In this document: one piece after another, positions 20,722-24,368 of the stretch
Layout: every line of letters begins with the position of its first letter
Position numbering within the stretch: position 1 is the stretch's first letter
Origin: Azospirillum sp. TSA2s
Lineage (GTDB): Bacteria > Pseudomonadota > Alphaproteobacteria > Azospirillales > Azospirillaceae
Length of the DNA stretch: 64,000 bases
NCBI RefSeq assembly: GCF_004923315.1
Contig: NZ_CP039650.1
Coordinates: 1,377,501 to 1,441,500, forward strand
Direction of reading: 5' to 3'
Position numbers and translations under genes: made by a program
Notes under the pieces: generated by a model
What the model was told of the DNA's origin: nothing
The model's database searches: none
Seen by the model: the letters and a program-made list of their open reading frames with translations, nothing else

Positions 20722-20812
20722 GGAGGGGTGGCCGAGCGGTTGAAGGCGCACGCCTGGAAAGTGTGTATACGTCAAAAGCGTATCGAGGGTTCGAATCCCT
20801 CTCCCTCCGCCA
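20722..20812 (+). tRNA. tRNA-Ser(GGA)
   Basis: A 91-nt class II tRNA with encoded CCA at 20810-20812. The acceptor stem pairs GGAGGGG with TCCCTCC (one G-U). The anticodon arm CACGC-CTGGAAA-GTGTG puts the anticodon GGA at 20756-20758. A long variable arm with a hairpin (ATACG/CGTAT) and TTCGAATCC in the T loop fit tRNA-Ser. Confidence 0.97.
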
Positions 20813-20819
20813 CGAAATC

Positions 20820-20870
20820 AGGCCAGAGCGTTGAATTCCTTTGGGAATCCGCTCTGGCCTTTTTCTTTTC
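20820..20870 (+). terminator. Rho-independent terminator after tRNA-Ser
   Basis: An 11-bp stem AGGCCAGAGCG / CGCTCTGGCCT (20820-20830 and 20850-20860) followed by TTTTTCTTTT. It directly follows the tRNA gene. Confidence 0.9.
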
Positions 20871-21100
20871 TCCACAGTTTGCCTTATTCGCGTTTCTTCG
20901 GCCGGAGACGCCGGGAGCGGCACGCCAGATCCGTGGCTGGCGGTAGAATTACGCCCGCATGTCGTGGGTGGATGCGTTAACGATGCAGTCGCGATCTTGC
21001 CCAATAATCTAACTGGCGCCGGAACAACCAACACGGCGCGGAATCGAACGAATTAATCCGTATGTGTTTCCTCTTGCAACAAAACCCTACTTTCGGTTTT

Positions 21101-21691
21101 ATGGATCTATGGTTTAGATGTGCTGTCGAGGTTCGCGTTCGTGTACACATTGGATTGGCTGCGGCCATTCTTGCTGCTGGTGTGCTGTCCGCATGCCAGA
21201 CAATGAATGACGTGGCGAAAACCGTCGGCAAGCCGCCGGAGAAAGCGCTTGAAATGCGCGCGCTCCAGACGCGCCGTTTCGACAGCGAGAACGAGAAGCT
21301 TCTGCTCGAGGCGGGAACCCAGACCCTTCAGGATCTTGGCTTCACCATTTCCGAGGCGTCGAGCGATGTCGGCGTGGTGGTCGCATCCAAGCAGCGGAAT
21401 GCGGAAGAGGGTGGGCAGGTCGCGGCACAGATCGGCCTGACGATCGCAATGGCTCTCCTCGGCGTGGCAAACAATCCCACCTGGGACCAAGAGCAGACCA
21501 TTCGGGTGACGTTTATTGCCAACCCGGTGTCGGGCGGCCGCCAGACCGAAGTGCGCACCACTTTCGACCGAATCCTCGTTAATAATCATGGGCACGCCTG
21601 GAAGGCGGAGTTGCTGATGGAACCGCAACTCTACCAGGAGTTCTTTGAAAAGCTCTCCGCCAGCGCGTTCCTTGAGGCTCACAAGATATGA
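21101..21691 (+). CDS. Lipoprotein of the MRALQTRRFD family (copy 1)
   Basis: About 196 residues from the ATG at 21101; an ATG at 21062 would add 13. No good Shine-Dalgarno decides between them. Signal VHIGLAAAILAAGVLSAC has lipobox VLSAC. The mature part carries LEMRALQTRRFDSENEKLLL and QTLQDLGFTISEA, a hydrophobic stretch (AAQIGLTIAMALLGVA) and ends FFEKLSASAFLEAHKI. It is clearly paralogous to the protein at 22691, with the same motif order. It overlaps the next gene by 4 bases (ATGA). Function unknown; an outer-membrane or periplasmic role is inferred. Base composition is visibly more AT-rich than the surroundings. Confidence 0.8.
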   Translation: MDLWFRCAVEVRVRVHIGLAAAILAAGVLSACQTMNDVAKTVGKPPEKALEMRALQTRRFDSENEKLLLEAGTQTLQDLGFTISEASSDVGVVVASKQRNAEEGGQVAAQIGLTIAMALLGVANNPTWDQEQTIRVTFIANPVSGGRQTEVRTTFDRILVNNHGHAWKAELLMEPQLYQEFFEKLSASAFLEAHKI

Positions 21692-22185
21692 CACTGAGCA
21701 AGAGCATCCGCTTTGCGATCTTCGGCGCTATGGCGCTTACCGTCGCAGCTTGCCAGACCAACAATCAGTCGCAGGTCGTGCTCAGCAAGAAAAGCCCTGT
21801 CGAGTTGAGGGCCATGCAGGCGCGCGCCTTCGAAACCTCCGATCAGAACAAGACCCTGCGAACGGTGATCGCCACCTTCCAGGATCTTGGCTATGGGATC
21901 GACAAGGTCGAACCGGCTGCCGGAACGGTATCGGCAACCAAGCTGGCCAAGCTCCGCATGACCGCAACGGTTTATCCGCGTGGTCCTTCGCGCATGATCG
22001 TGCGCTCCAATGCCTTGGTCATGAATCCTGGAATGGAAAGTCAGGTGGACGATCCGGCCTTTTACAAGGACTTGTTCTTTGAACCTCTGTCCAAGGCAAT
22101 GTTCCTGACTGCCCTGGAACTGGGAAGTGAAGAGGATGTTCCGCCGGTGGCGGACGCTGCATCGAAAACGACTGCCAAGCCGTAA
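21688..22185 (+). CDS. Lipoprotein, second family (copy 1)
   Basis: 165 residues; lipobox TVAAC after FAIFGAMAL. The mature protein has VELRAMQARAFETSDQNKTL and TFQDLGYGIDKVEPAAG, then LRMTATVYPRG and a C-terminal LSKAMFLTALEL. It is paralogous to the protein at 23242 and more distantly related to the copy-1 upstream lipoprotein, which shares the MQxRxFxTxD and LQDLG motifs. Start codon overlaps the previous stop (ATGA), showing coupling. It lacks the hydrophobic stretch of its partner. Function unknown. Confidence 0.82.
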   Translation: MTLSKSIRFAIFGAMALTVAACQTNNQSQVVLSKKSPVELRAMQARAFETSDQNKTLRTVIATFQDLGYGIDKVEPAAGTVSATKLAKLRMTATVYPRGPSRMIVRSNALVMNPGMESQVDDPAFYKDLFFEPLSKAMFLTALELGSEEDVPPVADAASKTTAKP

Positions 22186-22209
22186 TCCTATTCAGATCGA
22201 GGTCTTTCC

Positions 22210-22677
22210 ATGCTCTTCAAGAGTTTCTCATTGGCCGCGATGGGGCTTGCCTCGGTGCTGCTCGCCGGTTGCCAGACGGCGGGAGAGCATGCTGCGGCCG
22301 TCCGTCAGGCGCAGGATGGCGATCGCCTGACCGTCGGCAAGGTGCAGCGCGAGATCCGCATCGGCATGACGAGTGCCGAAGTCGTGGAGGTGCTTGGTTC
22401 GCCCAACATGGTGACGACGGATGACCGTCGGCGCGAGAACTGGGTCTATGACAAGATCTCGACGGAAACCGCGTACTCTTCCAGCAGCGGCGGAGTGAAC
22501 GCATTGATTCTGGGCGGTGGCCCGATCGGTGCCGGCATTGGCGGCGCCTTGGGCGGCGCCGGCATCAGCGGCGCAGCGGGCGCGCGCAGCACCTCACAGC
22601 GGACGTTGACGGTGATCGTCAAGTTCGACGAGAACAGCCGGGTCCGCGATTTCTCGTATCGCTCCAGCAGCTTCTGA
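22210..22677 (+). CDS. BamE/SmpA-like lipoprotein with glycine-rich segment
   Basis: 155 residues; lipobox LLAGC after SLAAMGLASV. The region VGKVQREIRIGMTSAEVVEV, LGSPNMVTTDDRRRENWVYD resembles the SmpA/OmlA (BamE) fold, with the typical GMTxxEVxxxLGxP. Unusually, a glycine-rich hydrophobic insert (LILGGGPIGAGIGGALGGAG) separates it from a final strand TLTVIVKFDENSRVRDFSY. In BamE this fold supports outer-membrane protein assembly; here the context is a lipoprotein block, not a bam operon. It lies between the two duplicated gene pairs. Confidence 0.82.
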   Translation: MLFKSFSLAAMGLASVLLAGCQTAGEHAAAVRQAQDGDRLTVGKVQREIRIGMTSAEVVEVLGSPNMVTTDDRRRENWVYDKISTETAYSSSSGGVNALILGGGPIGAGIGGALGGAGISGAAGARSTSQRTLTVIVKFDENSRVRDFSYRSSSF

Positions 22678-22690
22678 CAGGAGCGGCAGC

Positions 22691-23245
22691 ATGAAATGCC
22701 GGGTTGTCGTATCCGCCTTGATCCTAACGGCGTTGGCGGGCTGCCAGCAGACTCCGGGAGCGCAGCAGCAAGCCGCCGCGCTCACCCTGGCCGCTGAGAG
22801 CCTTGGGCAGCGTCAGATGCAAACCCGGCGTTTCGATACGGCCGATGAACAAGCGATCCTCGCGGCATCTGCCGGCGTGTTGCAGGACCTGGGGTTTACC
22901 ACCGAGGAGACAAACCTCAAGGCCGGGCTGATCGTCGCTTCCAAGGATCGCGATGCAGTCGAATCGGGGCAGGTTGCCGGGCAGGTCTTTTTTGCTCTCC
23001 TGGTCGCGTCTATGGGAGGCCGTGCTGATCCGGTGTGGGACGCCAATCAGAAAATCAGGATCTCCATTGTGACGCGCCCCACGGCCGATCGGAGCGGCAT
23101 CGTCGTCCGCGCGACGTTCCAGCGCGTGATCTGGAACACGAAGAACCAAATCTCGCGCGTAGAGACGATCGACAAGCCCGAAATCCATCAGCAATTCTTC
23201 GAAAAGCTTTCACAATCCGTTTTTCTTGAGGCGCACCAGATATGA
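22691..23245 (+). CDS. Lipoprotein of the MRALQTRRFD family (copy 2)
   Basis: 184 residues; lipobox ALAGC after VVSALILT. It repeats the copy-1 pattern: RQMQTRRFDTADEQAILAAS, GVLQDLGFTTEETN, IVASKDRDAVESGQVAGQV, a hydrophobic stretch (FFALLVASMG), DPVWDANQKIRISIV and an end FFEKLSQSVFLEAHQI. AGGAG lies upstream of the ATG. Like copy 1, its stop overlaps the next start by ATGA. The shared order indicates that the pair of genes was duplicated as a unit. Confidence 0.83.
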   Translation: MKCRVVVSALILTALAGCQQTPGAQQQAAALTLAAESLGQRQMQTRRFDTADEQAILAASAGVLQDLGFTTEETNLKAGLIVASKDRDAVESGQVAGQVFFALLVASMGGRADPVWDANQKIRISIVTRPTADRSGIVVRATFQRVIWNTKNQISRVETIDKPEIHQQFFEKLSQSVFLEAHQI

Positions 23246-23691
23246 GCATGCCCAATTGCCGCACTCTGTCGATCCGCGGCTTGGCCATTGCATTCGCACT
23301 TGCAGTTCTTCCGCTTGGCGGATGTCAAACGGACTCGAAGCAACAGGTGATGGCTGTCGACAAAAGCCAGGTCGAATTGCGTGCGATTCAGACGCGGGCA
23401 TTCGACACCAGTGACCGTAACCTGACGATCCGTACGGTAATTAGCAGTCTTCAGGATCTGGGCTTCGTCATCGATAAGGCCGATGAGCAGTTGGGGATCA
23501 TCAGCGGAACCAAGCTGTCCGGCTATGCCATGCGCATGACGGTTACCGTTCGCCCGCGCGGCAAAACCCAAATGTCGGTGCGCGCGAGCGCGCAATACAA
23601 TCTGGTCGCGGTATCGGACGCGGAGCCTTACCAGCAGTTCTTTGCCGCCCTCTCAAAAGCAATGTTCCTGACTGCCAACGAAGTCGACTGA
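23242..23691 (+). CDS. Lipoprotein, second family (copy 2)
   Basis: 149 residues; lipobox PLGGC after IAFALAVL. Motifs VELRAIQTRAFDTSDRNLTI, SLQDLGFVIDKADEQLG, MRMTVTVRPRG and a C-terminal LSKAMFLTANEVD correspond one-for-one with the gene at 21688. Last gene of the five-lipoprotein block; a hairpin follows at 23779. Function unknown. Confidence 0.82.
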   Translation: MSMPNCRTLSIRGLAIAFALAVLPLGGCQTDSKQQVMAVDKSQVELRAIQTRAFDTSDRNLTIRTVISSLQDLGFVIDKADEQLGIISGTKLSGYAMRMTVTVRPRGKTQMSVRASAQYNLVAVSDAEPYQQFFAALSKAMFLTANEVD

Positions 23692-23778
23692 AGCCTGAAA
23701 TCAGGACCCCGGTTGGTTCAGTCACTCTCATCGTTTTGGCAAAAGGGCGTTCTGGGTCAACTCGCCACGCCATAGAAA

Positions 23779-23819
23779 AGCCCGCCCTGCATCCGGCAAT
23801 TGCCGGTGCGGGGCGGGCT
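23779..23819. terminator. Hairpin between convergent lipoprotein block and marR gene
   Basis: AGCCCGCCC ... CCGGCAA/TTGCCGG ... GGGCGGGCT, an interrupted long stem. On the minus strand TTTTC follows; on the plus strand TTTT appears 7 bases later. It could stop transcripts from either side. Confidence 0.65.
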
Positions 23820-23861
23820 GTCAGTCTTTTCCGGTGCCTGGAACGGAAGGGGTAGTGCCCC

Positions 23862-24368
23862 TTACTTCGACCGCGACACGCGGCGCAGGAAGTCGATGAA
23901 CTGTGCCTGCTCTTCCGGGGACAGGTCCTTGACCATGCCCTGGTCGTGCGCCTGGACGCGCGGGATCAGGTCGTCCATCAGCGTCTGGCCTTCCGGCGAC
24001 AGGCGCAGCGCGTAGGAGCGGCGGTCGTTGGGCGAGGGGGCGCGCACGACGAGGCCACGCGACTCGAGACGGTCGATCACAGCGACCATCGTCGACCGGT
24101 CGATGCCGACCGCCGTGCCCAGGTCGGACTGCGACAGTCCCTCGTTCTCCCGGATCATGATCAGCACGCCGAACTGGCCGGGCGTGATGTCATGCGGAGC
24201 GACCGCATTCTGAAAGCTTTGGAACACCGCAACCTGAGCCTTGCGCAGGTTGTAACCCACCAGCTCCGGAAGGGGGCCAAGGGCGAGCTTGCCGTTCTTG
24301 CCGGGCCGCAGACGCGACCGCCGGTCGGCGGGGGTGGAACGCTCGTTGTCAGTCACCGTGGATGCCAT
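23862..24368 (-). CDS. MarR-family transcriptional regulator
   Basis: 168 residues with the MarR winged helix: FGVLIMIRENEGLSQSDLGT, AVGIDRSTMVAVIDRLESRG and the wing LVVRAPSPNDRRSYALRLSPEG. A basic N-terminal tail (DRRSRLRPGKNGK) precedes the dimer helices. Members bind palindromic operators as dimers and often respond to aromatic acids. It diverges from the FAH-family gene, which may be its target; direct GGATGAA repeats just upstream of its start (24374-24391) could be operator half-sites. Confidence 0.92.
   Translation of the reverse strand: MASTVTDNERSTPADRRSRLRPGKNGKLALGPLPELVGYNLRKAQVAVFQSFQNAVAPHDITPGQFGVLIMIRENEGLSQSDLGTAVGIDRSTMVAVIDRLESRGLVVRAPSPNDRRSYALRLSPEGQTLMDDLIPRVQAHDQGMVKDLSPEEQAQFIDFLRRVSRSK

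What the first reader, a model, noticed from the sequence alone, without database searches (positions are those of the whole stretch)
21101..23691. Five-lipoprotein block made of two duplicated gene pairs around a BamE-like gene
Order is A1-B1-E-A2-B2. A1/A2 share MQTRRFD, LQDLGF, a hydrophobic segment and FLEAHxI; B1/B2 share LRAxQxRAFxTxD, LQDLG and LSKAMFLTA. A and B share a core motif, and both pairs use ATGA overlaps. All five have a lipobox. The block is more AT-rich than its flanks and follows a tRNA-Ser gene, so it may be acquired. A new envelope complex or lipoprotein delivery unit is a plausible guess.
Basis: partly seen in the sequence, partly recalled or inferred. Interest (0 to 1): 0.65.

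Follow-up and report, generated by a model that had tools for sequence, protein, structure and literature searches.

The report
Mobile BamE/BamC-like lipoprotein operon
A small group of linked genes for outer-membrane lipoproteins, built like parts of the machine that assembles bacterial outer-membrane proteins, occurs sporadically in distant bacteria and has no name in the databases searched.

Summary
In detail: five lipoprotein genes, order A1-B1-E-A2-B2, at 21101-23691 of an Azospirillum genome. E has a BamE domain. A and B match no Pfam or NCBIfam family convincingly; they are predicted single-domain helix-grip lipoproteins. For both, Foldseek's best solved match is BamC, and a profile comparison weakly agrees, but the fold is common. 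The recurrent unit is a three-gene operon, E-A-B: in 80 of 80 loci collected with A, from many diderm phyla, E lies directly upstream. In a sample of 398 genomes of the phylum, strong E and A matches fall in the same 9 genomes, and in all 9 an A/B-type gene adjoins E. The five-gene form fits one duplication of the A-B pair in Alphaproteobacteria. The module is rare and mobile: an 8-kb plasmid, megaplasmids, phage-like contigs, and here a tRNA-Ser hot spot that is empty or holds other cargo in relatives. Distant A/B relatives without E exist. I propose an accessory module acting at or beside the BAM machine, pairing a second BamE with BamC-type domains in bacteria that lack BamC. The genetic unit is well supported; the mechanism is inferred (about 0.45). 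Envelope defence and a BAM-independent lipid-binding complex remain open.

The parts
20722..20812 (+). tRNA-Ser(GGA), left edge of the insertion hot spot
   Evidence: ARAGORN, Rfam; found in 10 of 10 relatives' pieces examined
21101..21691 (+). A1: helix-grip-type lipoprotein with a hydrophobic segment; diverged duplicate of A2 (start codon uncertain, 21062 or 21101)
   Evidence: first-copy clade 100/100
21688..22185 (+). B1: short lipoprotein, duplicate of B2, overlaps A1 by ATGA
22210..22677 (+). E: lipoprotein with a BamE domain
   Evidence: Pfam PF04355 1.2e-5, 25.4 bits against cut-off 23.2; only 21.7 bits in the six-frame genome scan
22489..22584 (+). Gly-rich, hydrophobic insertion inside E (residues 94-125)
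   Evidence: alignment; at least one GxxxG in 55 of the 81 family members in which the insert could be delimited, 86 examined
22691..23245 (+). A2: helix-grip lipoprotein, ancestral-type A
   Evidence: AlphaFold2 pLDDT 90.8; best Foldseek match BamC
22964..23011 (+). hydrophobic helix of A2 (residues 92-107, GQVAGQVFFALLVASM region), which B lacks
   Evidence: model; hydropathy over the family (A2 itself scores 1.42, under the 1.6 limit used for the family count)
23242..23691 (+). B2: short helix-grip lipoprotein, overlaps A2 by ATGA
   Evidence: AlphaFold2 pLDDT 87.6; best Foldseek match BamC
23772..23861 (.). right edge of the hot spot: conserved sequence downstream of the MarR-type gene (23862-24368, minus strand)
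   Evidence: found about 100-115 bp after the tRNA in three empty-site relatives

Best explanation
The block is a horizontally acquired, duplicated version of a three-gene lipoprotein operon, E-A-B. E is a second BamE-domain lipoprotein; A and B are lipoproteins each carrying one BamC-type helix-grip domain. The three most likely form one complex on the periplasmic face of the outer membrane that docks beside or onto the BAM machine (BamA/BamD) and changes the insertion or stability of outer-membrane proteins, or protects the machine under envelope stress. The hydrophobic helix of A and the Gly-rich insertion of E would contact the membrane. Shown by sequence or prediction: the operon, lipoboxes, shared A/B ancestry, helix-grip fold, BamE domain, mobility, and one A-B duplication as the simplest history. 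Inferred: complex formation, contact with BAM, effect on outer-membrane proteins.
For: E directly upstream of A in 80 of 80 loci. Strong E and A matches in the same 9 of 398 phylum genomes, with an A/B-type gene adjoining E in 9 of 9 (order varies, see full report). A-B overlap of exactly 4 nt in 46 of 84 A-B pairs; median E-A gap 12 nt over 79 pairs (starts chosen by script). Lipobox found by script in 87/91 E, 94/99 A and 92/95 B. E has a BamE domain. Best Foldseek PDB matches are BamC for both A (6lys_C, 4.9e-5) and B (9hg5_C, 1.4e-6). hhalign score against the BamC N domain: A 33.4, B 25.7; 60 column shuffles each reach at most 21.6 and 14.1; BamC N against its own C domain scores 31.4. 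All 80 record titles name diderm lineages. The genome has a canonical BamE elsewhere (63.2 bits) and no BamC match. A small gene that I read by eye as an outer-membrane barrel is adjacent in 6 of 8 Opitutae/Verrucomicrobia loci; in L071 and L107 the upstream gene matches the barrel family PF13505.
Against: No physical or genetic link to BamA or BamD was tested. Foldseek TM-scores to BamC are low (0.36/0.42 for A, 0.41/0.22 for the top B match). The helix-grip fold is common: BamC ties with plant PR-10 and KA1 domains for A (Z 9.8 against 9.9 and 9.7), and Flpp3 scores higher than BamC for B (10.9 against 9.7). The profile match to BamC is weak (probability 63% and 17%). Three Opitutae barrel-like proteins and the L067 neighbour matched no Pfam model. 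Neighbouring genes otherwise differ from locus to locus. B is missing in three of the nine phylum genomes, and distant A/B relatives without E occur in G086 and G185.
Confidence: 0.45

Rival explanations
1. Envelope-level defence or immunity cargo: the lipoproteins block phage entry (superinfection exclusion) or neutralise a periplasmic or membrane-acting toxin, and so travel on mobile elements.
For: Sporadic and mobile: 6 of 37 Azospirillum genomes, an 8-kb plasmid, a tRNA hot spot. E and a short A lie after a tail-like ORF and a reverse transcriptase on viral contig L104; E lies after a terminase on L109. E matches a phage protein family of unknown function, phrog_3135, at 1.3e-8. A gene of a WYL-regulator cluster lies close to six loci (Pfam WYL confirmed for four upstream members). 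BamE-like proteins are described as immunity proteins of Lipocone toxins (PMC12419801, passages).
Against: No toxin family recurs among the neighbours scanned (part of the loci only). E is well conserved (mean column identity 54%), unlike the rapidly evolving immunity proteins described. The best PADLOC match of the five proteins is E 0.0099. No relative in 50,697 phage records with the two queries tried.
Confidence: 0.25
2. A BAM-independent outer-membrane lipoprotein complex that binds lipid or another hydrophobic ligand in the helix-grip pockets and stabilises the membrane, comparable in role to SlyB-type glycine-zipper lipoproteins (comparison recalled).
For: The helix-grip fold is shared with ligand-binding PR-10 proteins and with Flpp3. 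A has a hydrophobic segment (17-residue hydropathy of 1.6 or more in 60 of 91 A, against 1 of 91 B) and E a Gly-rich insertion.
Against: The BamE domain is typical of BAM-type lipoproteins (general knowledge). BamC heads the Foldseek lists of both A and B. No Gly-zipper family appears among E's Pfam matches.
Confidence: 0.25
3. Lineage-specific duplication of ordinary lipoproteins with no joint function; adjacency is incidental.
For: Distant A/B-type lipoproteins stand alone (G185) or as a pair with no E seen on a short contig (G086).
Against: Constant E-A-B order across distant phyla in differing neighbourhoods and the same genome distribution of strong E and A matches.
Confidence: 0.04

Closest known systems
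BamC (Pfam PF06804, Lipoprotein_18) of the BAM complex
   Same: Lipoprotein with a helix-grip domain; best Foldseek match for A and B; weak but above-shuffle profile similarity to its N-terminal domain.
   Different: A and B have one domain, not two; none of the five proteins lists a PF06804 match; in a sample of 150 phylum genomes the 32 BamC matches were all outside the window's class, while A and B occur in many phyla.
BamE / SmpA / OmlA (Pfam PF04355)
   Same: E matches the domain over its cut-off (25.4 against 23.2 bits).
   Different: E carries a long Gly-rich insertion, is genetically tied to A and B, and is additional to the genome's canonical BamE (63.2 bits).
BamE-like immunity proteins of Lipocone toxins (PMC12419801, passages read)
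   Same: Membrane-anchored BamE fold outside BAM.
   Different: There described as rapidly evolving and paired with toxin genes; here conserved, and no toxin family recurred among the neighbours scanned.
Flpp3 and PR-10/Bet v 1 helix-grip proteins
   Same: Same general fold (Z up to 10.9 for B, 9.9 for A).
   Different: About 6-11% identity in the top rows; a common fold only.

Membership tests
BamC | Match to Pfam PF06804 | tested here: not met
   not listed for A1, B1, E, A2 or B2 at E up to 10 (filters drop most matches above about 0.1); no PF06804 match in the own genome
BamC | Two helix-grip domains after an N-terminal BamD-binding linker | tested here: not met
   models of A2 (184 aa) and B2 (149 aa) show one domain each
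BamC | Helix-grip fold | tested here: met
   predicted models; Foldseek; hhalign above shuffles; the fold is also shared with unrelated proteins
BamC | Physical part of the BAM complex | not testable with these tools
   needs pull-down
BamE | BamE domain above the curated Pfam cut-off | tested here: met
   (25.4 bits; cut-off 23.2); in the six-frame genome scan only 21.7 bits
BamE | NCBIfam BamE equivalog | tested here: not met
   20.3 bits against cut-off 93
BamE | Binding to BamA/BamD | not testable with these tools
   needs pull-down or a complex model
Known anti-phage defence systems (PADLOC) | Match to a PADLOC model | tested here: not met
   best E 0.0099 (PDC-S05, A1 only), nothing up to E 1 for the other four
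Lipocone-type toxin immunity | Adjacent toxin gene | tested here: inconclusive
   neighbour tallies: no recurrent toxin family, but only 290 of 397 ORFs, from part of the loci, were scanned

The most novel reading that the evidence does not exclude
E-A-B is a mobile, self-contained alternative lipoprotein module for the BAM machine: bacteria, plasmids and perhaps phages pass around a BamE-plus-BamC-like set that re-tunes which outer-membrane proteins are assembled, giving BamC-type domains to lineages (Alphaproteobacteria, deltaproteobacterial groups, Planctomycetes, Verrucomicrobia) that lack BamC.
Probability: 0.3. Interest if true: 0.85.

Novelty: new variant of a known kind. Interest (0 to 1): 0.6.

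Why it matters
BAM lipoproteins are described as lineage-specific subunits, and BamC as confined to beta- and gamma-proteobacteria (PMC3359395 and PMC13067283, passages read). A rare, mobile operon that pairs a second BamE with two BamC-type domains across many diderm phyla would mean that accessory parts of outer-membrane assembly can be shared horizontally, also by plasmids and possibly phages. It also gives two unnamed protein families a predicted fold, a fixed partner and a direct test.

Tried and rejected
Family names for A and B in Pfam, NCBIfam, PHROGs and PADLOC: none convincing (63 A members against NCBIfam; eight distant relatives against Pfam). Sequence match to solved structures: nothing meaningful. 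Viral fold library for A: best E 1.2e-3 with low TM-scores, taken as no match. Relatives among 50,697 phage records: none with the Acinetobacter A and the window E as queries. The window A2 alone as query found nothing in the viral contigs. A fixed neighbour gene: none except a WYL-regulator cluster at some loci and small barrel-like genes at others. Lol-type delivery: no Lol protein appears in the fold lists shown, which does not exclude it. Promoter and terminator scan: no promoter, one terminator-like site, below the shuffle means. An att-like direct repeat of the tRNA end was not among the repeats. Papers: seven completed searches listed no paper on this operon that I recognised; only open-licence PMC text was searched, mostly as listings; passages were read in four papers, of which PMC10260701 proved unrelated.

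Limits of the counts. The first BamC extraction ignored locus orientation and was discarded; replace it with 20 proteins: of the 32 genomes matched, 30 have loci, and L158 (no BamC frame recovered), L162 (partial match) and the weak matches L169-L176 were left out. The B-tree group table was cut from the output; I saw the printed B tree (starred first-copy branch, 99) but not its group statistics. Of 94 relatives found only the best 80 were kept. The neighbour set took at most the three longest ORFs of 90-899 aa within 1200 nt on each side, over 397 ORFs; I scanned 145 of 208 upstream (loci up to L083) and 145 of 189 downstream (loci up to L088); PADLOC and PHROGs were run on the upstream set alone. 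Of the 80 loci, L066, L080, L095 and L096 end at a contig end after A, L072 has E and A broken into two frames each, and in L097 the fourth gene is intermediate between A and B. Most of the lipobox misses are broken frames or show a Cys motif by eye that the script's start rule missed.
Full report
WHAT IS THERE. The window lies in an 8.1-Mb genome, contig C9. Between a tRNA-Ser (20722-20812) and a MarR-type gene (named by eye) lie five plus-strand genes, A1-B1-E-A2-B2, each with a lipobox. A1/A2 are 42% identical, B1/B2 50%, A2/B2 27%. E matches the BamE domain (25.4 bits, cut-off 23.2); A and B match nothing of note in Pfam or NCBIfam.

THE UNIT IS E-A-B. A collection scan with an A alignment returned 80 loci with organism titles (94 relatives found, best 80 kept). 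Titles include Alpha-, Beta- and Gammaproteobacteria, deltaproteobacterial and Desulfobacterota lineages, Planctomycetes, Opitutae/Verrucomicrobia, Omnitrophica, Nitrospinaceae, Methylomirabilis, Hydrogenedentes and two Bacteroidetes-labelled bins; many are metagenome bins, so single labels may be wrong. E lies directly upstream of A in 80 of 80. The orders are E-A-B 66, A-B-E-A-B 8, E-A 4 (all at a contig end), and two irregular: L072 with broken frames, and L097, whose fourth gene is intermediate between A and B. The median E-A gap is 12 nt over 79 pairs, and A and B overlap by exactly 4 nt in 46 of 84 pairs (starts chosen by script). A script found a lipobox in 87 of 91 E, 94 of 99 A and 92 of 95 B.

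CO-OCCURRENCE. In an even sample of 398 genomes of the phylum, the window's own included, the E profile found 9 with strong matches (E below 1e-20) and three weak ones (25-27 bits). The A profile found 10: the same 9 plus the weak G185. In all 9 an A/B-type gene adjoins E. In detail, E-A-B is present in G373, G143 and G163 and, as the five-gene form, in the window's genome. E plus one A/B-type gene is seen in G108, G401 and G166 (the last with a stop inside). G421 and G353 have six genes including E, with a B-type gene after E and two further A/B-type genes on the other strand; for G353 this rests on match positions only. The B profile (396 genomes) found those 9 plus G315 (a 49-residue fragment) and G086. 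So the module, in any form, occurs in about 2% of genomes. Against strict linkage, G086 has a tandem pair of distant A/B-type lipoproteins with no E on its short contig, and G185 a single one. A wider superfamily without E therefore exists. Vibrio sp. THAF191d also has E plus one A-type gene, with no B seen.

HISTORY. In an A tree of 96 rows, the first copies of the five-gene loci form one side of a branch with support 100/100 (9 of 9 labelled rows; the L097 first copy falls there too). In the B tree the first copies share a starred branch (99) (the B group table was cut from view). One duplication of the A-B pair in Alphaproteobacteria explains the window's arrangement. The A tree mixes phyla with good support, for example Candidatus Brocadia with Smithella and Syntrophaceae (100/96), as expected from transfer or from mislabelled bins.

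MOBILITY. In Azospirillum, 6 of 37 genomes, the window's own included, have A. The block has GC 59.0% against about 70% on both sides, and third-position GC of 0.69-0.81 against 0.87-0.93 in four neighbours. I fetched the tRNA-Ser region of ten relatives, chosen from 30 matched genomes. The tRNA was found in 10 of 10, and the right flank (MarR type, FAA hydrolase) in 8 of 10; in G002 and G001 it was not within the piece. The gap between tRNA and right flank is about 100-115 bp in three (G014, G016, G007: empty) and about 720 bp in G009. It is 3.7 kb in G022, with an ORF that resembles by eye the PPC-domain protein of A. oryzae (PF04151). It is about 4.4 kb in G011 and G004, with ORFs that I read by eye as an iron-type ABC transport set. 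In G015 it holds the same five-gene block plus the PPC-type ORF. This is an insertion hot spot; I saw no integrase ORF in the window's block. Other settings are A. brasilense megaplasmids after phbB, an 8-kb Acinetobacter plasmid with the complete E-A-B, and viral-collection contigs. Of nine E loci there, seven have A next to E; L104 and L105 look like the same stretch (same scores and coordinates). L104 also has a reverse transcriptase (6.6e-102) and a tail-like protein, and L109 a terminase (2.6e-33). On L104 the A frame is short and lies near the contig end, so a phage-host boundary is possible; the other viral contigs were not checked for phage genes. E matches phrog_3135, a phage family of unknown function, at 1.3e-8. 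No match was found in 50,697 phage records with two queries.

STRUCTURE. AlphaFold2 gives confident single-domain helix-grip models for A2 (pLDDT 90.8) and B2 (87.6); E was not modelled. Foldseek ranks BamC first for both, with low TM-scores (0.36/0.42 and 0.41/0.22). VIA-align shows that the fold is common: BamC ties with PR-10 and KA1 for A, and Flpp3 leads for B. hhalign scores against a BamC N-domain profile built here from 20 proteins are 33.4 (A, probability 63%) and 25.7 (B, 17%). The best of 60 column shuffles is 21.6 and 14.1, and BamC N against BamC C scores 31.4. A has a hydrophobic segment that B lacks (60 of 91 A against 1 of 91 B at the limit used; the window's A2 is just under it, A1 over it). 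E has a Gly-rich insertion. The own genome has a canonical BamE elsewhere and no BamC.

NEIGHBOURS. Pfam scans of 290 of 397 near ORFs show no fixed partner: the commonest family reaches 4 members upstream and 3 downstream. A cluster of WYL-type regulators lies close to L028, L036, L040, L055, L099 and L100 (and 2.8 kb from L089). Pfam confirms WYL for four upstream members; L099 and L100 were not scanned. A small gene, barrel-like by eye, is adjacent in 6 of 8 Opitutae/Verrucomicrobia loci; of the other two, L084 ends 209 nt after B and L088 has none. Three of these proteins had no Pfam match, while L071 and L107 have a PF13505 outer-membrane barrel upstream.

MECHANISM. The simplest reading is one periplasm-facing lipoprotein complex in the outer membrane that uses BamE- and BamC-type domains at or beside BAM. 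The steps after 'lipoproteins of one operon' are inference. The defence and lipid-binding rivals fit the mobility and the fold nearly as well, hence the confidence of 0.45.

KNOWN OR NEW. BamC is reported only from beta- and gamma-proteobacteria (PMC3359395, PMC13067283; passages read); here 32 of 150 sampled phylum genomes had it, none in the window's class. BamE-like immunity proteins are reported for Lipocone toxins (PMC12419801, passages). None of the searches made listed a paper that I recognised as describing this operon. I file it as a new variant of BAM-type accessory lipoproteins by resemblance, not as a BamC family member: the defining BamC tests (PF06804, two domains) were not met.

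Noticed in passing
window 20812-23772 and loci L208-L215: The interval between tRNA-Ser and the MarR-type gene is an Azospirillum insertion hot spot: empty, or filled with a PPC-type protein, an apparent iron ABC transport set, or this lipoprotein block.
   Followed up: partly
L104 950-4257: Phage-like contig with a reverse transcriptase next to a tail-like protein that by eye resembles a diversity-generating-retroelement target; E and a short A follow.
   Followed up: partly
L118/L130 (G421) and G353: Six-gene variant around E in small alphaproteobacterial genomes, with two diverged A/B-type genes on the opposite strand.
   Followed up: partly
L177 6947-7910 and L120: Two-gene form, E plus a distinct A subtype without B, in Vibrio sp. 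THAF191d and genome G108.
   Followed up: no
L036, L055: E-A-B close to WYL regulators, with ankyrin and (by eye) helicase-like genes nearby, which suggests defence-island settings.
   Followed up: no
L018, L019, L029, L031: In A. brasilense and A. griseum the operon sits just after an acetoacetyl-CoA reductase gene (phbB, polyhydroxybutyrate genes).
   Followed up: no
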